In this document: one piece after another, positions 8,649 through 17,887 of the stretch
Position numbering within the stretch: position 1 is the first letter of the stretch
Layout of the letters: each line of letters begins with the position of its first letter
Assembly: GCF_007066085.1 (NCBI RefSeq)
Contig: NZ_CP041405.1
Coordinates: 1,054,001-1,118,000 of the forward strand
Source of the DNA: Paenibacillus thiaminolyticus
GTDB lineage: Bacteria; Bacillota; Bacilli; Paenibacillales; Paenibacillaceae
Length of the DNA: 64,000 nucleotides
Direction of reading: 5' to 3'
Translations under genes and position numbers: made by a program
Notes under the pieces: generated by a model
What the model saw: the letters and a program-made list of their open reading frames with translations, nothing else
The model's database searches: none
Told to the model about the DNA's origin: nothing

Positions 8649-8687
8649 GAACTTACGTTTGTGCGAACGGAGGTTCTATGGTATAAT
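8649..8687 (+). promoter_or_regulatory. lexA promoter with embedded SOS box
   Basis: TTGTGC (8659-8664) and TATAAT (8682-8687) are 17 bp apart. A perfect LexA box CGAACGGAGGTTCT (8664-8677) lies between them. An imperfect copy GAACTTACGTTT sits at 8649-8660 over the -35 region. LexA autoregulation follows directly. Confidence 0.8.
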
Positions 8688-8721
8688 TTTGACAAAAGAG
8701 CATTCATTGGAGTTGATATCT

Positions 8722-9348
8722 TTGTCTAAAATATCAAGTCGACAACAAGCGATCCTTGATTTTATACGTGATGAAGTCCGCACCAAGGGTTATCCTCCTT
8801 CCGTAAGAGAGATCGGGGAAGCTGTCGGCCTCGCATCGAGTTCTACCGTGCACGGCCATCTGGACCGGCTGGAGAAGAAAGGCTTTATCCGCCGGGACCC
8901 AACGAAGCCAAGAGCAATCGAACTGCTGAGCGAACAATCGGATCGCCATTCGGAATTCAGCCATGCCGTGGCACGCGTTCCCGTCATCGGGAAGGTAACG
9001 GCCGGAGAACCGATTACGGCAACAGAGAACATCGAAGATTACTTCCCTCTTCCGGTGCATATGGTGGGAGATGATGACAACATCTTTATGCTATCCGTAG
9101 TCGGCGACAGCATGATCGAAGCCGGAATACATAACGGAGACTACGTTATCGTCCGCCAGCAGCAGACAGCGAACAACGGTGAAATTGTCGTAGCCATGAC
9201 CGAGGAGAACGAAGCAACCGTAAAGACATTCTACAAGGAACGCGATCATATCCGCCTTCAGCCGGAGAATCCGACATTTGAGCCGATCCGGTTGAAGCAT
9301 GTGACGATTTTGGGCAAAGTGATTGGGTTGTTCCGTGATTTTCATTAA
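8722..9348 (+). CDS. lexA: LexA SOS repressor
   Basis: 208 residues from a TTG start. The winged-helix domain ([31 protein letters not shown]) binds SOS boxes. The Ala-Gly cleavage site is in VTAGEPI. The latent protease has Ser in [10 protein letters not shown] and Lys in ATVKTF, so RecA-stimulated self-cleavage should be intact. I use TTG at 8722, since GGAG lies about 9 bp upstream and the promoter -10 at 8682-8687 rules out the upstream ATG. It is divergent from yneA. Confidence 0.95.
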
Positions 9349-9378
9349 TGGTTACAACCAATGGGAGCAAGTGTAAAG

Positions 9379-9423
9379 AAGCCGCTTTGGATACAGCAGT
9401 TCTGTATTCGGAAGCGGCTTTTT
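9379..9423 (+). terminator. lexA terminator
   Basis: AAGCCGCTT (9379-9387) pairs with AAGCGGCTT (9412-9420), with an inner ATACAG/CTGTAT stem. A T-run follows at 9418-9423. Confidence 0.85.
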
Positions 9424-9443
9424 GACGAGTCCGGGCCATATGT

Positions 9444-9845
9444 CATGATTCATTCGGGGGCTGAAGCCGTCGCGTTCGCCAAGGAAGGCGCCGACATCGC
9501 GATGGTGTATTTGAATGAGCATGCCGAGGAAGCAAGCGGCGTCAGGCAGGCCGGACGCGCTGCGTGCTTATCGGTCGCGACATTGGAGAAGAATCGTTCT
9601 GTAACCATACTGTGGAACAGACCGTAAAGGAGCTTGGGAAGCTGGACATATTAGTCAATAATGCTGGCGAACAGCATCCGCTGGAGCGCATCGGTCGCAT
9701 TTCAGATGCACAGCTTCAAAGAATGCCGGTGCAGCGCCCTAGATGACCTGAAAAGCTCGCTCCCAGCTACGTCTATCTGGCAAGTGCTGATTCCTCTTAC
9801 GTCACCGGACAGAGTTTGCATGTCAACGGGGGCGAAATTAAGTAA
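9444..9845 (+). pseudogene. Decayed short-chain dehydrogenase (YhxC/YdaD type)
   Basis: Pieces of an SDR oxidoreductase remain in order. AVAFAKEGADIAMVYLNEHA resembles the end of the Rossmann dinucleotide loop. In another frame come RDIGEESF and KELGKLDILVNNAGEQHPLE, the NNAG motif. After an in-frame TGA at 9744-9746 comes APSYVYLASADSSYVTGQSL, ending HVNGGEIK. The N-terminal TGxxxGIG loop and the catalytic Ser-Tyr-Lys middle are missing. So there is at least one frameshift (about 9565-9590), a large internal deletion and a nonsense codon. Confidence 0.75.
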
Positions 9846-9873
9846 TCATTATTCCTGGTACCGGGCGCTTTTA

Positions 9874-10158
9874 CTAATGCCACCAGGATTCGACAATTTG
9901 ATGCGCAACAGTCGGATCATATCCTTTCCCAATCAGATATGATACGGCTGCCGCTTCGCGCAACGCATGTTCAACCGATATGCAATGTGCTTCCTTTAAT
10001 CCGTTTTGCACCCATGGCTCGACGGTCTGTAATGTTTCCATCTTTAAATGTTGAGTCTCCGAACATTCATGCGGATAGGAATGATGAGGATAAGAATAAG
10101 GGTTCATGTATGACCACGGGTTAAGAGACATTGAATATGGTTGGTATTGGTAACTCAA
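9874..10158 (-). CDS. Small Tyr/Pro-rich protein, possibly spore-associated
   Basis: About 94 residues. The N-terminal third is rich in Tyr, Pro, Ser and His (MNPYSYPHHSYPHEC). The rest is a helical domain (TVEPWVQNGLKEAH, then EHALREAAAVSYLIGKGYDP, ending IVESWWH). I do not recognise the family. The Tyr/His-rich head is reminiscent of spore coat proteins. The start is uncertain: a TTG at 10158 has GAGGGGAG about 10 bp upstream, while the ATG at 10185 has little. Confidence 0.5.
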   Translation of the reverse strand: MSYQYQPYSMSLNPWSYMNPYSYPHHSYPHECSETQHLKMETLQTVEPWVQNGLKEAHCISVEHALREAAAVSYLIGKGYDPTVAHQIVESWWH

Positions 10159-10270
10159 AGAAAAACAACTCCCCTCATAGTTCATACCTCATCATATGCC
10201 TATGGACCAATTATGCTCCAGTTCAAAAACAAATTATTGTAAGTCCTTCCTCCCATTTATCCGGGCATAC

Positions 10271-10299
10271 AAAAACGGCCCTGCTGAATAAGCAGGACC
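10271..10299 (-). terminator. Terminator of the YjcZ-like gene
   Basis: GGCCCTGCT and AGCAGGACC form a stem with one weak pair. The minus strand continues into TTTTT at 10271-10275. Confidence 0.75.
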
Positions 10300-10357
10300 T
10301 TGTACAGTAGGCTGCCTTTAATCGCAAATGCGCAAGGCGCTGACTCATAAAAAACGA

Positions 10358-10462
10358 TTAGTAAATAAATGCACGGGAAACGATTACTAGCAGTATAAAC
10401 AATACCAAAATTACACCTGTCGACGTCCAGAGCCCACCAATACCACAAGTAACTCCACCCAT
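10358..10462 (-). CDS. YjcZ-family sporulation peptide
   Basis: 34 residues: a Gly-rich head with one Cys (MGGVTCGIGGLWTSTG) and then one hydrophobic helix (VILVLFILLVIVSRAFIY). This is the form of the tiny YjcZ-type membrane peptides made in Bacillales sporulation. AAAGGAGG sits 8 bp before the ATG. It has its own terminator. The position of the peptide in the spore is not known from sequence. Confidence 0.8.
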   Translation of the reverse strand: MGGVTCGIGGLWTSTGVILVLFILLVIVSRAFIY

Positions 10463-10600
10463 TCGAGTTACCTCCTTTCACTTGGTACTCCCATGATATT
10501 AGAATTACGGACGGTTTGACTTGGCTATAACCCATAGGCACAAAATTTGGGCCGTTAGTGCGAACGGCGCCCTCAACCGTGACCTTGCTGCTCCCAGGAG

Positions 10601-10625
10601 TGAAAGTGTTGTGCCATCACTTTCA
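10601..10625. other. Stem-loop without T-run
   Basis: TGAAAGTG (10601-10608) pairs with CACTTTCA (10618-10625). There is no flanking T-run, and it lies about 80 bp upstream of the small basic ORF. Confidence 0.35.
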
Positions 10626-10702
10626 GGATAGATACCCCTCAGCTTTAGCACAATCATTTAAAGCAATTACTCATAATGTAATACAGAAAGGAGGTGGCTT
10701 GA

Positions 10703-10798
10703 ATGAGACGTCATCGTAGAACAATCACTGTTGTTCTTAAACGAGGTCAGAAAGTATTGGTAGTGTGTAGAAGAAAACGGAGAAGACATTGTTGGTAA
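10703..10798 (+). CDS. Arg-rich 31-residue peptide
   Basis: The sequence reads MRRHRRTITVVLKRGQ, then KVLVVCRRKRRRHCW: 13 Arg/Lys, two Cys and a C-terminal Trp. AAAGGAGGTGG at 10687-10697 is a near-perfect ribosome binding site at good distance, which is the main reason to believe it is translated. A hairpin (GGAGCACC/GGTGCTCC, 10812-10844) follows the stop. I recognise no family. Nucleic-acid or spore-DNA binding, or membrane activity, would be guesses from charge alone. Confidence 0.5.
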   Translation: MRRHRRTITVVLKRGQKVLVVCRRKRRRHCW

Positions 10799-10811
10799 TT
10801 ACTCATTTGTG

Positions 10812-10844
10812 TGGAGCACCGTAGAACCTTAGCGTTGGTGCTCC
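10812..10844. terminator. Hairpin after the Arg-rich peptide gene
   Basis: GGAGCACC and GGTGCTCC form an 8-bp stem with a 16-nt loop, 14 bp past the stop. The following sequence is only moderately T-rich. Confidence 0.4.
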
Positions 10845-10942
10845 ATCCCTTCCGCTGACGGCCTTGTTCTAGCCTTTCGGCGTCTTCAGATGTAGTGCAG
10901 TTTCTGCTGCCATTGGGGCACCTCCCCCGTGTATATCGTAAG

Positions 10943-10970
10943 AAAAAAAGCCTCGGAGTAATCCGAGGCT
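10943..10970 (-). terminator. Orphan minus-strand terminator
   Basis: AGCCTCGGA/TCCGAGGCT form a 9-bp stem with a 4-nt loop, followed on the minus strand by TTTTTTTC. It lies just past the ruined gene tail at 11015, so it marks where a minus-strand gene once ended. Confidence 0.75.
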
Positions 10971-11014
10971 ACTGAATAACTTGCGGTTTTAACTAAACAA
11001 CTGAATACCGAGAA

Positions 11015-11284
11015 TTATAAGATGGTTGGTATCCCTGAGTTTGGAATATCGGTCGTCTTTTCGCTTTTTAATTCTGCCTTAAAAGCTGGATTTCTTACTC
11101 CATCAGCTTTCGTGTTCTTATCAAATTACTCAAAAATTGCTTTGAGCTACAAGTACTTGAACATCCGAATCGTATCAATTACAGTTCTGCCGTTCTCTCG
11201 ACAATAGTTCTGTTCGAGTTCCTCATACACGAAGGAAAAGTCAATGAGCCCAGTAATTTTGCGCAATATGCTGTCTTTGGGAAC
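11015..11284 (-). pseudogene. Gene fragments including an IS1182-type transposase N-terminus
   Basis: At 11148-11284 (minus) the frame reads VPKDSILRKITGLIDFSFVY, then EELEQNYCRENGR. This closely resembles the N-terminal part of IS1182-family transposases, which begin with a similar KIDKLIDFSFIY pattern. It ends at a TAG. A second scrap at 11015-11116 reads NTKADGVRNPAFKAELKSEK and ends IPNSGIPTIL before a stop; I do not recognise it. Both are far too short to function. The pieces seem to have been spliced together by deletions. Confidence 0.5.
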
Positions 11285-11485
11285 GACCAAGGAACCTCAC
11301 ATGCCCCATTCAACACAAACGAAACCGCAGAAGTTAAGTTACAAAAAACTCAACTATTACTGGCGTTGCAAGGTCAAGCGTATCGCCATCCGGAATCGTT
11401 ATCGTTGTTACTGTCCTGGAAGCATCAGAGAACTCAAAATTCCCAAGATACCCCCAGGGGAGGAGCATAAGTGCCATAGTCTGAC

Positions 11486-11660
11486 TATAAGTCACTCATA
11501 ATCGTATTTTTCAAGTACTCATTAAATTCGGAATATTCATCTTCTGCACTACTCCTTGGATAACTCATGATGACAAGATTATAGGGCAAATTCTCTTTTC
11601 GGTAAGCAGGATGTTTATGTTCGTAAGGGTTTTCTTGAAACTGTTGTAGATATGCTCTTT
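11486..11660 (-). pseudogene. C-terminal gene fragment, unknown family
   Basis: An open frame on the minus strand reads QENPYEHKHPAYRKENLPYN, then LVIMSYPRSSAEDEYSEFNE and YLKNTIMSDL before TAG at 11486-11488. Composition is protein-like, yet no start codon with a binding site is found and a stop lies a few codons upstream. I read it as a decayed 3' end. Confidence 0.3.
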
Positions 11661-11689
11661 ATGGTTGTGCCAATTTTATACGATATTAG

Positions 11690-12132
11690 ATAGAAGTCAC
11701 AAGTTCGCGTATTTTGCCCTTTTCAGGAGCTGCTTCTACTTCATCATCAGTAGGTCTCATCAGTTATTAATTGCATATCGTAATTAAGTCCCGGAGGAGA
11801 TTTCAATGTAAGACTATAATTAAAACGACCTCCATAAGTTTATCTATCAGGTAAAAGTCATTGTCTCCGTAACTTTCAATCGGCTCGATAAATTGAGCAA
11901 AATTGCTACCTCCTTCTGCATCTGATTCGCTTTAGTTCACATCAAAGACTATGGTTTTTGAATGATTCCTGACACAGCCTCCGTACTGTCCTCTTACTGA
12001 GCAGTATTCGGTCGTTGTCATCGTTATAACCCCAACAGGCCCCTTCCCTTTAAGGTCTATTAGGTTAGCCCGAATCGTTAACCCGCTGCTCCCCCATCCA
12101 CTTTCAAGCACCCGGATCAGTATGTGCTCCAT
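11690..12132 (-). pseudogene. Decayed protein gene, unknown family
   Basis: From an ATG at 12132 the frame encodes MEHILIRVLESGWGSSGLTI through RNHSKTIVFDVN. It then meets TAA (11932-11934) and continues in the same frame with SESDAEGGSNFAQFIEPIES and YGDNDFYLIDKL. A frame change follows, to GGRFNYSLTLKSPPGLNYDM. The readable text on both sides of the stop argues for a real gene broken by a nonsense codon and a frameshift. I cannot name the family. Confidence 0.35.
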
Positions 12133-12199
12133 TTTTAAATGAAGACATGGTATTGGACCTACACTTGTAGTTCAGATCGCTGATTCAGCTCGTCTTGCC

Positions 12200-12320
12200 C
12201 TGTTTACCGCATCATGCCCCCGCAGCATGTCATTAAGGCAGTGCAATAAAATACGTTCATCCGCCTCGTAAAACTCCGGAAAAGCCAGATACGCAGATAC
12301 CATTTTGGAAAATTAATTAC
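12200..12320 (-). pseudogene. Short coding-like fragment
   Basis: One minus-strand frame reads VSAYLAFPEFYEADERILLH, then CLNDMLRGHDAVNRARRAES. It has protein-like composition but no start. It is probably a scrap of a lost gene; the family is not recognised. Confidence 0.25.
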
Positions 12321-12348
12321 TATGGTCTCTTTAGATGTGCATCGACAC

Positions 12349-12405
12349 ATTGTATACGTTTGTATACAATTCATAACAAAGTAATATGTATTCAATTGTA
12401 TACAA
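12349..12405 (+). promoter_or_regulatory. Promoter with repeated TTGTATACAA operator
   Basis: The perfect palindrome TTGTATACAA occurs at 12360-12369 and 12396-12405. A third GTATAC core lies at 12352-12357 within ATTGTATACG. A likely -35 (TTGTAT, 12360-12365) and -10 (TAATAT, 12382-12387) are 16 bp apart. One operator therefore covers the -35, and the other sits just before the ribosome binding site. This pattern is typical of MarR- or TetR-like repression; no regulator gene lies beside it. Confidence 0.6.
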
Positions 12406-12420: not shown

Positions 12421-12810
12421 ATGAAAGATGAAGTATTTAGAGATTTTAAGAAAGAGAGACATCATCATGGTGAACGTTACAAAGGAAAAGATAGTTCACA
12501 CCAGCGGGGTCCAAAAACCTTTCGACGTGGGAGGGCAATTGCTTTTTTAGAGATGTTGAATCTTAAGCGTTCCACCATTAAACAACAGTTAGATCAACCA
12601 GAGTTTGAATCGATTCATCAAATTTTAGTTGGTGAATTAAAAGCCATCGATATGGTAATCAACGAATTTATTCAGTTATTTGAAATACACATAAGTGAAG
12701 CCATGGAAATACCCAAGACAAAGAATGAAGAAACGGAAACTTCTGTGTCGGAAAGCAAAGAGTTTAAAGCTAAAGATGAGAAAGGAAGTGAATCTGATGA
12801 AACAAATTAA
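12421..12810 (+). CDS. Unknown charged protein, first gene of a two-gene operon
   Basis: 129 residues. The basic N-terminus contains HHHGERYKGKD and GPKTFRRGRAIAFLEMLNLK. A helical middle follows (LKRSTIKQQLDQPEFESIHQ, then ELKAIDMVINEFIQLFEIH). The acidic tail (KNEETETSVSESKEFKAKDE) looks disordered. Similar small proteins occur beside drug-resistance or methyltransferase genes in Bacillales, as far as I recall, but no function is established. It starts at ATG 12421 because GTGGAGGG lies 8 bp upstream. The stop overlaps the next gene by 14 bp, implying translational coupling. The region is AT-richer than the flanking core genes. Confidence 0.7.
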   Translation: MKDEVFRDFKKERHHHGERYKGKDSSHQRGPKTFRRGRAIAFLEMLNLKRSTIKQQLDQPEFESIHQILVGELKAIDMVINEFIQLFEIHISEAMEIPKTKNEETETSVSESKEFKAKDEKGSESDETN

Positions 12811-13435
12811 CAGTTATATCGATTCCGTATTTTATAAGCAAGATGCTCTTTTGGAGGATGTTATTTCATCCATACAAGAAAACGGAATGCCCGCCATATC
12901 GGTATCTCCTTCCTCTGGAAAACTCCTGACGATGCTTGTTTCCATTTCAAGGGCTAAAAATGTGTTGGAAATAGGGGCTCTGGGGGGCTACAGCGGGCTT
13001 TGCCTGGCCAGGGGATTCGGTATCGAAGGAAAATTAACCTCCCTTGAATTAGAGGAAGGTTACGCAGAATTAGCATACAGCAATCTTTCTAAAGCTGGCT
13101 TTGGTAATCAAGTCACCTATGTTACCGGACCGGCTTTGCAAAGTCTTGAAAAATTAGTTGCCAACAATAAACAATATGATTTTTTCTTTATTGATGCTGA
13201 CAAGGAAAATTACGAAACTTACCTGACATATTGCATTAGTCTCGCGGAAGCGGGCGCTTTAATCGTTAGTGATAACGTACTGGCAGGCGGCACGGTAGCG
13301 GATCAGGACGCTCAGCCTAAGCGTTATACAGAAATAATGAAGAAATTCAATAAAACCGTGGCCAATCATCCTCAATTAGAATCACTGCTTATTCCAATAG
13401 GTGATGGGATGACCGTTTCCAAAGTTAAAAAATAA
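12797..13435 (+). CDS. Class I O-methyltransferase (COMT/CCoAOMT type)
   Basis: 212 residues. SAM-binding motif I is VLEIGALGGYSGLCLARG near residue 56. Motif II has the acidic residue in LTSLELEEGYAELA. FFFIDADKENYETYL near 130 is the metal-binding Asp segment of cation-dependent O-methyltransferases, followed by GALIVSDNVLAGGTVAD. The enzyme should methylate a catechol-like hydroxyl; the substrate is unknown. It starts inside the previous gene (ATG 12797) with AAGGAAGTG upstream. The shared operon and operators suggest induction by a small molecule. Confidence 0.85.
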   Translation: MKQINSYIDSVFYKQDALLEDVISSIQENGMPAISVSPSSGKLLTMLVSISRAKNVLEIGALGGYSGLCLARGFGIEGKLTSLELEEGYAELAYSNLSKAGFGNQVTYVTGPALQSLEKLVANNKQYDFFFIDADKENYETYLTYCISLAEAGALIVSDNVLAGGTVADQDAQPKRYTEIMKKFNKTVANHPQLESLLIPIGDGMTVSKVKK

Positions 13436-13540: not shown

Positions 13541-13612
13541 ACTCATAATTTTTTGTGGGCATTTGAGGGTATCGACCCGAATGACGCAAAAAATCTTCCC
13601 GTGCCCCCACAG

Positions 13613-13638
13613 TAAAAAAACCTCGATGCCTTAGAGGT
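13613..13638 (-). terminator. Probable former glnA terminator
   Basis: On the minus strand ACCTC and GAGGT pair around a 9-nt loop and run into TTTTTTT (13613-13619). It lies 15 bp beyond the displaced copy of the glnA 3' end. It was therefore presumably the glnA terminator before the element inserted. Confidence 0.5.
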
Positions 13639-13652
13639 CCAAGGGCTTCGAT

Positions 13653-13706
13653 AATTAATATAAGGTCATATATTGATCGCGTTCCCACTGATGAACCTGT
13701 GTGCGG
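13653..13706. repeat. Distal attachment-site repeat (copy of glnA 3' end)
   Basis: 54 bp identical, apart from one T/C difference at 13672, to 16557-16610, which holds the last codons and stop of glnA. The two copies are in direct orientation and bracket 2.85 kb with an integrase remnant, as expected for attL and attR of an element that recombines into the 3' end of glnA. Confidence 0.8.
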
Positions 13707-13811
13707 GTTTAAGTTTTTGCTTTTCACACAGTTGCATATTACTTGAAAAACCTTATAATAACAGGCTTTTTCGTAATCGGGAACATTATGTAACTTCATA
13801 TGACTTCTTAA

Positions 13812-13832
13812 TTGTGGGTGGTTTTGTGGGTG
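13812..13832 (+). promoter_or_regulatory. Paired TTGTGGGTG sites (integrase arm-type sites)
   Basis: TTGTGGGTG at 13812-13820 and 13824-13832. The same 9-mer recurs as a pair at 16457-16465 and 16468-16476 and inverted at 16507-16515, close to the other end of the element. Short direct repeats at both ends are typical arm sites of tyrosine integrases of the Tn916/ICE kind. Confidence 0.55.
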
Positions 13833-13959
13833 ATTCGTACCATAAAAATAGCCCCGGAGTGATCCGGAGCTTCAGGTTGAGACAAACCCTCGCGAAATAC
13901 TGCAGCCCCGGGAGTTCTTTATGTTCTTTGTCCATATTTCAAATACGAAGTTCAAATTA

Positions 13960-14279
13960 TCAGATGGGTGACAGCCTTCCAGGTCCAGGTCGCCATTTTT
14001 TTGAGGTCATGGCAGCAAAAACTCGCTCTATTGTCTCCTTTCGCCCCGCATACATTCGTTGTTTTCCTCTGTTTGGCGAAGGTGGTCTGCCTCTTCAACA
14101 TATTCAGCCCAAACATATCGCTTGATGCGTTTCACTGCATCTTTACTCTCACATTGTGTCCGGAGCGGACAAGCTTGGCAGATTGGCGGGTTCGAGCGAT
14201 ACATTTTAACCGTCACGATTCGTTGTTTCGTAAAACAGTAGCGCATTTGCTGGACATAGGGAACAGCCGTAGTGTTCAT
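13960..14279 (-). pseudogene. IS1182-family transposase, C-terminal remnant
   Basis: The minus strand encodes MYRSNPPICQACPLRTQCES, then VWAEYVEEADHLRQTEEN. This is the zinc-cysteine and HLR segment of IS1182-type transposases. It then breaks frame near 14035 and continues as YAGRKETIERVFAAMTSKKW, matching the RKETIERVFAD motif that follows in intact relatives. Sequence after that is unrelated. N-terminal domains are absent, so it is a fossil. It lies within the att-bounded segment. Confidence 0.7.
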
Positions 14280-14402
14280 CGTCTCAACGTGTACTTGTAC
14301 ATATCTATCTCCCCCTTAGAGGGCCCGAAGGCCCTTAATGTAAACATGTATATTCCTTTAACAATTGGGTCCTGGTCATGAGAAATCTGCTTCGTGCCAT
14401 CA

Positions 14403-14600
14403 TCACAGTATTCGTGTGGATGTACCATTTGTATCTTCGTAGTGGACATAGATCATTTCATATCCATCGAGGCTTTCGAACAGGCAGAAGTGCTTGTGTG
14501 CTACCTTTTCTGCTTTATTCATACCTCTTTCCCCGCATAATACAACACGTTTCTGGGCATTCGTCCAATTCATTTTGTAGGCGACTGCATAGAATGCCAT
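14403..14600 (-). CDS. Doubtful small ORF
   Basis: 65 residues (MAFYAVAYKMNWTNAQKRVV, later NKAEKVAHKHFCLFESLDGY, ending EDTNGTSTRIL). Composition is protein-like, but there is no ribosome binding site, and the region upstream is the ribosome binding site of the opposite-strand gene at 14626. It may be a remnant. The family is not recognised. Confidence 0.3.
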   Translation of the reverse strand: MAFYAVAYKMNWTNAQKRVVLCGERGMNKAEKVAHKHFCLFESLDGYEMIYVHYEDTNGTSTRIL

Positions 14601-14625
14601 ATAAATTATTTGGGAGGTAATTATT

Positions 14626-14910
14626 TTGAGTAGTCATCCAATGATGCATCAAATGCCTTATATGCACCACAAGTCCTATATGCACCACAAGCCATATATG
14701 CATCACAAGCCTATCGTGGTTTATCCTGTAAATCCTTGCGTTGTTGAAGCTTTAATGTGCCAAATTGGAAATGTTGTTATTCTGGAAACCACACGTGGTA
14801 GAATCGACGGATGTGTCCTGGATGTCAAACAAGACCATGTTTTGCTCGAACAAAGAAAAAAGAAATTTTTTGTCCGCATTGCAGAAATCGTTTGGATCAT
14901 GCCAGAATAA
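14626..14910 (+). CDS. DUF2642-like protein with His-rich repeats
   Basis: 94 residues from a TTG start, with GGGAGGT 8 bp upstream. The head repeats YMHHK three times (about residues 12-28, six-residue period). The tail (IGNVVILETTRGRIDGCVLD, then DHVLLEQRKKKFFVRIAEIV) resembles the DUF2642/YuzF family of small Sm-like beta proteins linked to sporulation in Bacillus. The His-rich repeat head is unusual and could bind metal or coat components. It appears to be the only intact gene inside the att-bounded segment. Confidence 0.65.
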   Translation: MSSHPMMHQMPYMHHKSYMHHKPYMHHKPIVVYPVNPCVVEALMCQIGNVVILETTRGRIDGCVLDVKQDHVLLEQRKKKFFVRIAEIVWIMPE

Positions 14911-14925
14911 TTTGTGATATATGTC

Positions 14926-14944
14926 GGGGAGGTTCACCCTCCCC
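14926..14944 (+). terminator. Hairpin after the DUF2642-like gene
   Basis: GGGGAGG and CCTCCCC form a 7-bp stem with a 5-nt loop, 16 bp past the stop. The T-run is short. Confidence 0.5.
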
Positions 14945-15188
14945 TTAGGTGCTGAGCGCCCATAGATTTAATATTCGAGGAATCAACTGCATCCGCCGAT
15001 GTCGAAGAGGTCAATCTGCATCTCATTCTCGATTTCGTGATTTAGTCCCTAATCGGATACGGCTCGCCGACACGCTTCATAAAGCTGTATTGCTGAACCT
15101 TCCTGTATTCATTGACTGTGCTGCCGGCAGGATGGATTTACAGTTTAAGCCTTAGAGAGGCATAGTTCGCAAAAAACAATCGAGCTCA

Positions 15189-15346
15189 GGCTGTTGAGAA
15201 AGTCCAAGGGATTTTGTGGCACTTTATTTTTTATGTGGTGGATCTCGTCTCTCCGTAGAAAAAATCGATTTAAAACGCTAAGGGTCCAAGTTTTGAGTAG
15301 GAAAATGGACAATCTCCACCCCTTCGTAAAAAATTTTCCAACGGCC
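15189..15346. mobile_element. MITE-like element, copy A
   Basis: 158 bp. The left end GGCTGTTGAGAAA and the right end TTTTCCAACGGCC are near-inverse of each other. The inside shares blocks with copy B at 15745-15893: a GGGATTTT segment, CATTTTTTAT or close to it, TCGTCTCTC, and CTCCACCCCTTCGTAAAA. There is no coding capacity. Terminal inverted repeats, small size and two copies in 560 bp fit a miniature inverted-repeat element moved by a transposase elsewhere. Confidence 0.65.
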
Positions 15347-15375
15347 ATTTCCCTAGACACGTCTATCCGGTAGGC

Positions 15376-15614
15376 GAATTCCGCAAAACTGCACGATTTC
15401 TCCAAGCACGCCTATTCGGTAAGCGAAATCCTGCGCCAATACAGCAATTCGATATGGACGACTTTACCAGAAAGGGAATCCTGCAAAACTGCAGGAATTT
15501 CACCCGTTTCGCTTTGACTTGAAGCAAAAGGGCCTAAAATGATGTAGATTTGCAGCAATTCCTCGGGATGTGGACTCATTGAGCCGAAATTCCTGTAAAA
15601 TAGAAGCAATTCCC
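15376..15614. repeat. Five imperfect hairpin repeats, about 50-bp period
   Basis: Units begin near 15376, 15425, 15476, 15537 and 15586. The best copy (15476-15501) holds CCTGCAAAACTGCAGG, a 6-bp stem with a 4-nt loop extended by AAT/ATT. Other copies keep the flanking GAAWTCC and GCAATTCC with a degraded core. There is no coding frame. They lie between the two MITE copies. Confidence 0.55.
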
Positions 15615-15634
15615 TCCACACGTTCAAGCCCCAG

Positions 15635-15710
15635 GAGGCAACGATGCCTCCAGAAGGCAATGATGCATCTTGAAGGCGATGATGCATCTTGAAGGCGATG
15701 ATGCCCCCAG
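15635..15710. repeat. Four 19-bp tandem repeats
   Basis: Units at 15635, 15654, 15673 and 15692. The middle units are AAGGCGATGATGCATCTTG with one change; the outer ones vary (GATGCCTCCAG, GATGCCCCCAG). The array lies between the hairpin repeats and MITE copy B. Confidence 0.8.
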
Positions 15711-15744
15711 GATCCGACGCGGTCTCTTGGATCCCGTAAAATTA

Positions 15745-15893
15745 GGCCGTTGAGAAGTATTGGGGGATTTTCGCCACTTCATTTTTTATATCGTGGAGCT
15801 CGTCTCTCAGTAGAAAATATTCTGAGTGCCAAGTTTAGATTGTGTAAATGGACATCTCCACCCCTTCGTAAAAAACAGGCTTTTCCAACGGCC
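15745..15893. mobile_element. MITE-like element, copy B
   Basis: 149 bp, starting GGCCGTTGAGAA and ending TTTTCCAACGGCC. It is in the same orientation as copy A. It directly abuts the surviving integrase text (from about 15894), so it probably truncated that gene or marks a deletion endpoint. Confidence 0.65.
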
Positions 15894-16454
15894 TGGAGCT
15901 GCACGAGTATAATATTAAACAACAAATCAAGCCATATTTCAAAGAAATTTTGCTAAAAGATATCAAGCCGATAATGTTCCAGAAATCAATTCAAGACCTT
16001 GGAATATCACGGCGAAGAATAAAAGAACTGTTCGGGGACATCAAAACGTATCGCTCTACTCGCGTAATTTCAATGAGTCAGTCTTTACCAATGATCTACG
16101 TTATCACATGAACTGCAAAATCAAAACAAGCTTGTCCTAAATGATGCATACCACCACGATCTGAATCTGGTACTATGTCGAGAAGACGGAAATTTCATGC
16201 CAAAATCATCACTCTTTAATGCCTTCTCCAGGATTCTGAATCGCGCCGGATTACCGCCATTGCCGATCCATTCGCTGCGCCATACCCACGCAGTCATATT
16301 GCTTGAGAGCGGCGCCGATATGAAGTATGTCCAGGAACGGCTTGGCCACGGAAGTATTCAAATTACATCGGACGTGTACGCCCACGTATCCAAAAAACTT
16401 GAGGCTACGAATATGGACAAGTTTGAGAATCACCTCAAAAACATTCTCGAATAA
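15894..16454 (+). pseudogene. Tyrosine integrase, truncated and rearranged
   Basis: The first piece reads LELHEYNIKQQIKPYFKEIL, then LKDIKPIMFQKSIQDL, the core-binding domain of ICE/phage integrases. It jumps without most of the middle to FGDIKTYRSTRVISMSQSL and then, after a 1-base shift near 16115, to NKLVLNDAYHHDLNLVLCRE. The C-terminal catalytic part (16197-16454) is intact. HSLRHTHAVIL carries the HxxR box, LGHGSIQITSDVY the following His and the nucleophile Tyr. The N-terminus ends at MITE copy B. It points toward glnA and stops 103 bp before the att repeat, the usual position for an integrase next to its site. Confidence 0.8.
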
Positions 16455-16456
16455 AA

Positions 16457-16515
16457 TTGTGGGTGTTTTGTGGGTGCTCCACTCCGCTACCTTCCCCGCA
16501 TCATTTCACCCACAA
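16457..16515. promoter_or_regulatory. Integrase arm-type sites near the glnA-side end
   Basis: TTGTGGGTG at 16457-16465 and 16468-16476, and its inverse CACCCACAA at 16507-16515. The first two overlap the codon after the integrase stop and repeat the spacing seen at 13812-13832 within one base. Confidence 0.55.
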
Positions 16516-16519
16516 ATTA

Positions 16520-16552
16520 AAAATCCCCAGAAGCCTTACGGCTCTAGGGATT
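16520..16552 (-). terminator. Present glnA terminator, inside the element end
   Basis: On the minus strand AATCCC-AGAGCC pairs with GGCTTCT-GGGATT, followed by TTTAATTTG. It lies 6 bp past the glnA stop but outside the 54-bp repeat, so it belongs to the inserted side. Confidence 0.75.
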
Positions 16553-16556
16553 AAAG

Positions 16557-16610
16557 AATTAATATAAGGTCATATACTGATCGCGTTCCCACTGATGAAC
16601 CTGTGTGCGG
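16557..16610. repeat. Proximal attachment-site repeat (glnA 3' end)
   Basis: The in-gene copy of the 54-bp direct repeat also found at 13653-13706. It covers the glnA stop codon and the last 16-17 codons, so integration left the enzyme's coding sequence whole. Confidence 0.8.
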
Positions 16611-17887
16611 TACATATCCCATTCGATTTCCTTCAGCTCCATGAAGTGCTGCAGCGCATGCTCGCCGAGCGAATCACAAATGATCTCGTCGCGGAGCAAT
16701 GCTTCCAGCGCTTCCTTGAGGCTGGATGGCAAGCTTGGGATGCCTTCCGCTTCGCGCTCTTCGTCCGTCATCACGTAGATATTCCGGTCAGTCGGCGCTG
16801 GCAGGTCGGATTTTTTCTTGATTCCGTCCAATCCCGCATTCAGAATAGCGGCCAACGCCAAATACGGGTTCGCCGACGGATCCGGGTTGCGCACCTCAAC
16901 CCGTGTGCTGAGACCGCGGGATGCGGGAATGCGAACCATCGGGCTGCGATTGCTTGCGGACCAAGCGACGTAGCATGGAGCCTCATATCCCGGAACGAGC
17001 CGCTTATAGGAGTTGACTGTCGGATTCGTTATGGCCGCGAAGCCGCGGGCATGCTTCAATACCCCGGCCATGAAGCGGCGGGCATCATCGCTCAAGCCCA
17101 GCTTATCCTTCTCGTCATAGAACGCATTCTCCTTGCCCTGGAACAGCGAGATGTTGCAGTGCATGCCGGAGCCGTTCACGCCGAACAACGGCTTCGCCAT
17201 GAAGGTGGCGTGCAGGCCATGCTGGCGCGCGATCGTCTTCACGACGAGCTTGAAGGTCTGGATCTGGTCAGCGGCCTTGATGGCGTTCGCGTACTTGAAA
17301 TCAATCTCATGCTGCCCCGGCGCCACTTCATGGTGGGAAGCTTCGATTTCAAAGCCCATTTCCTCCAGCTTCAATACAATCTCGCGACGGCAGTTCTCCC
17401 CCAGATCCGTCGGGGCCAAATCGAAATACCCGCCCTGATCGTTCAGCTCCATCGTCGGATTGCCCTTCTCATCCGTCTTGAACAGGAAGAACTCCGGCTC
17501 CGGTCCGACATTCATCGCCGTATAGCCCATTTCTTGCGCTTCCTTCAGCGCCCGCTTCAGAATGCCGCGCGGACATCCGGCGAACGGAACTCCGTCTGTT
17601 GTATATACGTCACAAATCAACCGTGCTACACGATCTTCCGTTACCCATGGGAATACCACCCAAGTATCCAGATCAGGCACCAGATACATATCTGATTCTT
17701 CAATCCGCACATAACCTTCGATAGAAGAGCCGTCAAACATCATTTTGTTGTCCAGCGCCTTGTTCAATTGGCTTACCGGGATCTCCACATTCTTGATCGT
17801 TCCCAGCAAATCCGTAAATTGAAGCCGGATAAATCGTACATTTTGTTCTTCCGCGATGCGTACAATGTCTTCTCTGGTGTAACCCAT
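16559..17887 (-). CDS. glnA: Glutamine synthetase, type I-alpha
   Basis: 442 residues; condenses glutamate and ammonia with ATP to give glutamine. EPEFFLF near 130 and [12 protein letters not shown] near 240 hold metal and substrate ligands. NRSPMVRIP near 317 is an ATP/phosphate-contact segment. The length fits the Bacillus-type GSI-alpha, which is not adenylylated and is instead feedback inhibited and sensed by GlnR. It follows glnR at 44 bp with a strong AAGGAG, so the two form the glnRA operon. Its 3' end is the target of an integrated element. Confidence 0.97.

What the first reader, a model, noticed from the sequence alone, without database searches (positions are those of the whole stretch)
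13653..16610. Carcass of an integrative element that uses the glnA 3' end as its target
A 54-bp sequence from the last codons of glnA is repeated in direct orientation at 13653-13706 with one mismatch. The enclosed 2.85 kb holds a tyrosine integrase relic beside the glnA-side copy. This is the classic attL/attR arrangement, but the 3' end of a glutamine synthetase gene is not among the commonly described targets (tRNA, guaA, rpsI, rplL and others). Element cargo is almost wholly gone.
Basis: partly seen in the sequence, partly recalled or inferred. Interest (0 to 1): 0.75.

Follow-up and report, generated by a model that had tools for sequence, protein, structure and literature searches.

The report
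Decayed prophage at glnA landing site
The 2.9 kb between two copies of the end of the glutamine synthetase gene looks like the rotted remnant of a bacterial virus that once inserted there, and the same gene end turns out to be a landing site used again and again in Bacillus-like bacteria.

Summary
The 54-bp repeat (13653-13706, 16557-16610, one mismatch) is real and found at 2 places only in the 6.6-Mb genome. It covers the last 17 glnA codons with the stop. Inside lies a dead tyrosine integrase: residues ~126-223, with Arg201, are gone and a 709-bp dispersed repeat sits in the gene.

The site is no curiosity. Of the 80 nearest integrase relatives kept from species-level genomes, 77 have glnA or its 3' end downstream. 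In 398 class-level genomes it is 18 of 19 held loci at >=50% identity, own included. Two occupants (51 and 56 kb) carry phage head and tail genes. Nine genomes, own included, have paired glnA-end copies. Bacillus phage SPbetaL5 carries the glnA end behind its integrase, as an attP would. Ten relatives look unoccupied.

The elements seem to bring their own terminator and arm sites, so glnA is restored and the site stays usable. The glnA-lexA gap ranges from 70 bp to 72 kb.

Known mechanism; glnA-side prophages are mentioned in print, but I found no account of a dedicated integrase lineage.

The parts
16559..17887 (-). glnA, type I glutamine synthetase, intact; its 3' end is the target
   Evidence: 442-aa ORF; found in 19 of 19 genomes of the genus and 118 of 118 of the family sample
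16557..16610 (-). glnA-proximal copy of the att core (attR): last 17 codons, stop, 2 nt
   Evidence: 98% identical to the distal copy; such pairs in 9 genomes, own included
13653..13706 (-). distal copy of the att core (attL)
   Evidence: still encodes 16 of 16 C-terminal GlnA residues
16518..16553 (-). terminator-like hairpin with T run behind glnA, inferred to be supplied by the element
   Evidence: sequence seen directly; similar stretches behind glnA at occupied or scarred sites of other genera, mostly different ones at empty sites (by eye)
16457..16515 (.). arm-type sites: TTGTGGGTG twice, 11 bp apart (16457-16465, 16468-16476), and one inverted copy (16507-16515)
   Evidence: positions; pattern score 16 of 16; same layout in 50 of 61 loci with an open integrase, 0-1 in each of 20 base-composition shuffles
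16113..16454 (+). integrase relic, C-terminal piece (residues ~265-378), with the H-R-H-Y part of the active site
   Evidence: 85% identical over 110 aa to an open integrase of G009; PF00589
15992..16090 (+). integrase relic, piece for residues ~224-256, in another frame than the C-terminal piece
15896..16015 (+). integrase relic, piece for residues ~82-125; residues ~126-223 including Arg201 are missing after it
   Evidence: 78% identity over 46 aa
15107..15186 (+). probable 5' integrase remnant left of the dispersed repeat
   Evidence: local DNA alignment score 62, maximum 46 in 300 shuffles
15187..15895 (.). 709-bp dispersed MITE-like repeat inserted in the integrase gene; 5-bp target duplication GAGCT (15182-15186, 15896-15900)
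   Evidence: 48 match rows in the own genome, the window copy included; ends and duplication
14626..14910 (+). DUF2642 ORF inside the element, origin unclear
   Evidence: PF10842, E 1.8e-18; no PHROG match
14031..14279 (-). fragment of an IS1182-family transposase
   Evidence: NF033551, E 1.4e-8, 34.1 bits, far below its cut-off of 270
13544..13652 (.). older scar outside the distal copy: terminator-like stretch and decayed arm region of an earlier occupant
   Evidence: 71-73% identical to the integrase-glnA spacer of two relatives and 68-70% to the sites of G008 and G016; against it, the arm-pattern scan finds nothing here at either setting
12806..13435 (+). O-methyltransferase, chromosomal marker on the far side of the element
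   Evidence: PF01596; same side in G008, G009 and G016; not found in the held stretch of G007
8659..9348 (+). lexA (named by likeness, recalled), the convergent neighbour of glnA
   Evidence: convergent in 107 of 107 same-contig pairs

Best explanation
13653-16610 is a decayed prophage (or another element with the same phage-type integrase) that entered by site-specific recombination between its attP and the 3' end of glnA. The attP carries a copy of the last ~17 glnA codons, then the element's own terminator, then three arm-type integrase sites (two direct, 11 bp apart, one inverted ~50 bp on), then the integrase gene. After crossover inside the shared core, glnA is rebuilt with the element's terminator behind it and stays functional; the original 3' end moves to the far side as attL. 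Because glnA again ends in a full core, the site can be used again. Here the element later lost nearly everything: a MITE-like repeat entered the integrase, part of the integrase was deleted, and the phage genes went. Shown by sequence: repeat pair, dead integrase, arm pattern, relatives with open integrases at the same place, empty sites, a glnA end on a phage record. Inferred: the recombination itself, the place of strand exchange (probably within the 20 nt, CAYCARTGGGAACGCGATCA, that never differ between the paired copies), the element origin of the terminator, the order of decay, and that the window's own element was a phage.
For: Repeat at 2 places only in the genome. Genus: 11 of 11 integrase rows at >=71% identity are beside glnA or a detached copy of its end, 0 of 37 at <=49%. 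Named genomes: 77 of the 80 loci kept (of 164 relatives) have glnA or its end downstream, mostly 100-120 bp from the integrase stop. Class sample: 18 of 19 held loci at >=50% identity, own included. Family sample: 11 rows in 9 genomes at >=55% identity, all at glnA or a copy of its end; the single 36% row is elsewhere. Paired cores in 9 genomes, 49-51 of the last 51 nt identical. Occupants of 51 and 56 kb: 10 of 10 chosen proteins match head, tail, packaging or lysis families. SPbetaL5 and a 33-kb circular Bacillus replicon carry the glnA end behind the integrase. Arm pattern in 50 of 61 loci, 0-1 per shuffle; 0 of 10 empty sites.
Against: No phage structural gene was found in the window (13 of 17 ORFs scanned), so a satellite or island with the same integrase is not excluded for this copy. 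The nearest element-free relatives (G008, G016) are scarred and hold a shared stretch of ~650 bp between glnA and the methyltransferase that the window lacks. Three of 80 relatives (L077, L123, L127) showed no glnA end, nor did one of 19 in the class sample (L280). In 3 of 19 genomes of the genus (G002, G004, G017) the site shows no arm pattern even at the relaxed setting. The G009 pair lies on two contigs. The 80 loci were chosen by likeness to glnA-type integrases. Recombination was not observed.
Confidence: 0.94

Rival explanations
1. The second copy arose by a local duplication or rearrangement of the glnA end (slippage, IS-driven), with an unrelated integrase relic nearby.
For: An IS1182 fragment and a MITE-like repeat lie in the interval.
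Against: The integrase is at glnA in 77 of 80 relatives, the arm layout recurs in 50 of 61, and paired cores bound prophage DNA in G014 and G001.
Confidence: 0.02
2. The carcass is from an ICE, genomic island or phage satellite that shares the integrase, not from a phage.
For: No phage structural gene was found here; the integrase also sits on a 33-kb circular Bacillus replicon typed as a plasmid, whose annotated neighbours include a phage antirepressor and an ImmA/IrrE peptidase.
Against: The two occupants scanned have head and tail genes; in G009 the integrase lies beside a repressor-like and a metallo-protease-like protein of PHROG families.
Confidence: 0.2
3. Two elements, not one: the distal core belongs to an older, separate insertion and the material between is a composite of two or more relics.
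For: Tandem arrangements exist: detached glnA ends with a second integrase relic behind them in G009 and G014, and two integrase loci 60 kb apart on one P. ottowii contig. The window keeps an older scar at 13544-13652.
Against: The element end next to the distal core (from 13707) resembles that of G009 (74% over 125 bp) and a 46-bp stretch of G007, as expected for one left end; no third core copy is in the genome.
Confidence: 0.2

Closest known systems
dusA-associated integrases and islands (Farrugia et al. 2015, PMC4482086; abstract, outline and one passage seen)
   Same: A tyrosine integrase family tied to one conserved protein-coding gene, shared by diverse prophages and islands.
   Different: The target there is the 5' end of dusA and the hosts are Proteobacteria; here it is the 3' end of glnA in Bacilli. 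The passage names one member beside a glutamate-ammonia ligase gene in Rhodobacter sphaeroides; not followed up.
[quoted passage not shown] passages seen)
   Same: Prophages of 47-49 kb reported as integrated downstream of glnA.
   Different: Only the position is stated in the passages seen; whether the integrase is of this family was not tested.
S. aureus site between glnA (femC) and the next gene in macaque isolates (PMC9570271; passages seen)
   Same: Phage-specific genes reported on one side of glnA.
   Different: The authors call the identification not safe; no att sites or integrase in the passages seen.
SPbeta-like phages (PMC8270828; passages seen)
   Same: Bacillus temperate phages with defined att sites; SPbetaL5 is classed in Spbetavirus.
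   Different: The passages give spsM, kamA and intergenic sites, with sprA as integration gene; SPbetaL5 carries a tyrosine integrase with a glnA end behind it.
Islands at the 3' end of guaA (passage) and at tRNA genes (recalled)
   Same: Integration into the end of a gene that the element restores (recalled).
   Different: Different gene. I recall no account of an element-supplied terminator as a constant part.

Membership tests
Phage-type tyrosine integrase (Arm-DNA-bind_4 / SAM-like / Phage_integrase) | Phage_integrase catalytic domain | tested here: met
   Relic 16113-16451: PF00589, E 6.1e-16; PHROG integrase families
Phage-type tyrosine integrase (Arm-DNA-bind_4 / SAM-like / Phage_integrase) | Complete catalytic set R-K-H-R-H-Y (recalled) | tested here: not met
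   Residues ~126-223 with Arg201 are missing; the pieces for K241, H317, R320, H343 and Y353 remain. The relic is a dead descendant; three open relatives carry all domains
glnA-3'-end integrating elements (defined here) | Direct repeat of the glnA 3' end at both ends | tested here: met
   13653-13706 / 16557-16610
glnA-3'-end integrating elements (defined here) | Integrase gene convergent to glnA, stop about 100-120 bp from the glnA stop | tested here: met
   Stop at 16454, glnA stop at 16559: 104 bp between; relatives
glnA-3'-end integrating elements (defined here) | Two direct arm sites 11 bp apart and one inverted | tested here: met
   Window glnA side scores 16 of 16; 50 of 61 relatives
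Temperate tailed phage | Head, tail and packaging genes | tested here: not met
   None among 13 of 17 ORFs of 60 aa or more scanned in the interval; present in the occupants of G014 and G001
Temperate tailed phage | Excision and circularisation | not testable with these tools
   Needs a bench assay; a glnA end on SPbetaL5 and on a circular replicon is indirect support for the family
Integrative and conjugative element | Relaxase and conjugation genes | tested here: inconclusive
   None among the same 13 ORFs in Pfam, but the element is gutted, so absence says little

The most novel reading that the evidence does not exclude
One old integrase lineage has followed the glnA 3' end through much of the class Bacilli. 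Its phages do not merely restore glnA: they replace its last codons and its terminator with their own, leave the site usable, and so turn the gap between the nitrogen gene glnA and the SOS repressor gene lexA into a self-renewing landing pad that records successive occupants as stacked scars. The phage-supplied 3' end may change glnA expression in the lysogen.
Probability: 0.3. Interest if true: 0.7.

Novelty: new member of a known kind. Interest (0 to 1): 0.5.

Why it matters
It adds glnA, the central ammonium-assimilation gene, to the well-supported integration targets, with a set of markers (integrase, core, arms, terminator) by which such prophages can be bounded exactly. In the family sample 57 of 107 glnA-lexA gaps exceed 2 kb; part of that DNA may be phage debris, which was shown only for the loci examined. 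A constant core with changing arm motifs is a natural set for testing how integrases keep one target while their arm sites change, and the site may serve as a non-disruptive integration site for vectors in laboratory Bacillus strains.

Tried and rejected
Arm co-evolution: I asked whether arm motifs follow the N-terminal domain of the integrase (50 loci). Arm similarity correlates with it given the catalytic domain (partial r 0.245), but as well with the catalytic domain given the N-terminal one (0.274), so this is inconclusive. The arm scan found nothing on the window's distal scar; that scar rests on homology alone, and my notebook's phrase that all sites of the genus carry arm relics is too strong (16 of 19 at the relaxed setting, which had no shuffle control of its own). 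No tRNA gene and no Rfam family at gathering score in the window, so an RNA gene as target is not supported. A tree of 40 integrases chosen by me put all 30 glnA-labelled rows and 2 others on one side of a branch (98/96) from 8 others; the label needs 2 changes, the root is a midpoint, the bootstrap had not settled. Literature: ten searches were answered. Passages or outlines were opened in eight papers; those of PMC11318856, PMC12441131, PMC5585140 and PMC10516654 had no bearing. None that I saw describes a dedicated integrase lineage at glnA. The library lacks most subscription journals, and the SPbeta comparative paper that I recalled is not held.
Full report
OBSERVATION. The window is G000:C1:1054001-1118000 of a 6.6-Mb single-contig genome. 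The 54-bp repeat lies at 13653-13706 and 16557-16610 with one mismatch, and a search of the genome found these 2 places only. It holds the last 17 codons of glnA with the stop, plus 2 nt. The distal copy still reads 16 of 16 C-terminal residues.

INSIDE. The integrase relic is beside the glnA side (PF00589, E 6.1e-16). Against an open 378-aa integrase from G009 (L059:8397-9530; Arm-DNA-bind_4, SAM-like and Phage_integrase domains) the pieces match residues ~80-125, 224-256 and 265-376. Residues ~126-223, with Arg201, are missing, and the C-terminal piece is in another frame. A 709-bp repeat (15187-15895) sits in the gene with a GAGCT duplication; DNA left of it resembles the 5' part of the integrase gene (score 62, maximum of 300 shuffles 46). 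The genome search gave 48 match rows for this repeat, the window copy included. Also inside: a DUF2642 ORF and an IS1182 transposase fragment. Of 17 ORFs of 60 aa or more that overlap the interval, 13 were scanned; ten gave no Pfam and no PHROG match.

GENUS. In 19 genomes, 48 integrase rows were listed at E<=1e-10. By coordinates, all 11 rows at 71% identity or more lie beside glnA (9) or beside a detached copy of its end (2, in G009 and G014); none of the 37 rows at 49% or less does. Detached glnA ends were found in G000, G001, G007, G009 and G014. The two copies are about 51 kb apart in G014 and 56 kb in G001. Five chosen ORFs of each gave PHROG matches: terminase, portal, major head protein, tape measure and endolysin in G014; terminase, portal, tail sheath, tape measure and baseplate in G001. 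They are different phages with the same integrase family (66% and 65% identical to that of G009) at the same site. In G009 the gene's neighbours match repressor and metallo-protease PHROGs.

EMPTY SITES. G016 and G008 have no integrase trace between glnA and the same O-methyltransferase, apart from one row at E 0.28. They are not pristine: behind glnA they carry a terminator-like stretch and arm motifs, 68-70% like window 13544-13652 over about 110-130 bp, and share some 650 bp that the window lacks. In the genus 12 of 19 glnA-side sites show the arm pattern at the strict setting and 16 of 19 at the relaxed one; G002, G004 and G017 show none. In other genera of the family, 10 of 10 loci with gaps of 70-944 bp show none at either setting. 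By eye most of those ten have terminators of other sequence; L249 has one that looks like the type at occupied sites.

FAMILY. glnA and lexA lie on one contig in 107 of 118 genomes and are convergent in all 107 (coordinates typed from the tables; the second glnA-like hits of G027 and G034 were dropped). The gap is 70 bp to 71.7 kb, median 2.2 kb; 25 are under 500 bp, 57 over 2 kb, 27 over 5 kb, 5 over 20 kb. The integrase was found at E<=1e-60 in 10 of 118 genomes: 11 rows in 9 genomes at 55% or more identity, all at glnA or at the detached copy in G014; one row at 36%, on another contig than glnA. G003, G010 and G014 are also in the genus count. In G069, G112, G049, G092 and G040 a distal copy of the core was found; for the other genomes with this integrase outside the genus (G077) no distal copy appeared in the 9.2 kb held.

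WIDER. In one-genome-per-species contigs the 80 best loci were kept of 164 relatives. tblastn finds glnA or its end in 75 of 80; pattern searches add L131 and L143, a copy with 3 mismatches to the pattern. L077, L123 and L127 remain. In L096 glnA is 1.5 kb away. Genera include Paenibacillus, Brevibacillus, Bacillus, Domibacillus, Halobacillus, Oceanobacillus, Peribacillus and Planomicrobium. The query alignment was made of glnA-type integrases, so this set is chosen by similarity. The class sample is less biased: 52 of 398 genomes had a match at E<=1e-50 (at most 4 candidates per genome were scored); 30 loci were held; 18 of 19 at 50% or more identity, own included, have glnA beside them, and 3 of 11 below 50%. 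The exception is L280. The three are L283 (46%, with stops) and L287 and L291 (37 and 36%); by eye L287 and L291 have similarly spaced motifs. The class sample overlaps the family sample in G049 and G069. In IMG/VR loci 14 of 80 showed the glnA end downstream; many of those contigs end soon after the integrase, and I did not count how many.

attP. Bacillus phage SPbetaL5 (56% identity) and a 33-kb circular B. glycinifermentans replicon (57.5%) carry a copy of the Bacillus glnA end behind the integrase, followed by a hairpin-like stretch and arm-like motifs; a Cytobacillus replicon has the integrase 108 bp from a whole glnA. So the attP predicted from the window has a counterpart on a phage record.

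MECHANISM. Core pairs from 9 genomes share 49-51 of the last 51 nt (which mends an off-by-one for G014; the G009 pair is on two contigs). The longest stretch without a mismatch in all nine pairs is 20 nt, CAYCARTGGGAACGCGATCA, positions -39 to -20 from the end of the stop codon; strand exchange probably falls there (inference). Arm layout: two direct copies 11 bp apart and one inverted copy about 50 bp on, in 50 of 61 loci with an open integrase frame (of the 80) against 0-1 in each of 20 base-composition shuffles. The motif itself varies (GTGGGT, GGGGGC, GGTCA, TCGGGC and others). That the terminator comes with the element follows from its likeness across genera at occupied or scarred sites and its absence at most empty ones; this is inference by eye. 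That the site stays usable is supported by detached cores followed by a second integrase relic in G009 and G014 and by an older arm region in G069 and G049.

KNOWN OR NEW. Gene-end integration that restores the gene is a known kind (recalled). Glutamine-synthetase-side prophages are mentioned in Macrococcus (PMC12016501, passages) and, as unsafe, in S. aureus (PMC9570271, passages); dusA integrases (PMC4482086, abstract and one passage) are the nearest published parallel of a target-dedicated family. In some searches I found no description of this lineage. Verdict: reader supported; ordinary mechanism, wider than suspected, moderate interest.

Noticed in passing
window 15187-15895: A 709-bp non-coding dispersed repeat, 48 match rows in the genome at 73-100% identity, with imperfect inverted ends (CAGGCTGTTGAGAAAG / CTTTTCCAACGGCCTG) and, by eye, short target duplications at several of 14 further copies; MITE-like, partner transposase unknown.
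   Followed up: partly
window 15631-15725: Five tandem 19-bp units inside that repeat, 68-100% alike.
   Followed up: no
window 9349-12400: Long low-coding stretch between lexA and the methyltransferase with short ORFs, only partly shared among relatives; possibly more debris of earlier occupants.
   Followed up: no
window 14626-14910: DUF2642 ORF with an N-terminal run of YMHHK-like repeats inside the carcass; cargo or host gene not decided.
   Followed up: no
L055 and L087/L137: Tandem integrases at glnA: a second integrase relic behind a detached glnA end in G014, and two integrase loci 60 kb apart on one Paenibacillus ottowii contig, one of them with the glnA end only.
   Followed up: partly
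L287, L291: Integrases only 36-37% identical, from genomes of 2.2-2.6 Mb of one other family, also beside glnA; the glnA habit may be much older or have arisen twice.
   Followed up: partly
L061 7303-8139: In G007 a degraded glnA-end copy and, 0.7 kb away, a 46-bp stretch that resembles the window's element end.
   Followed up: no
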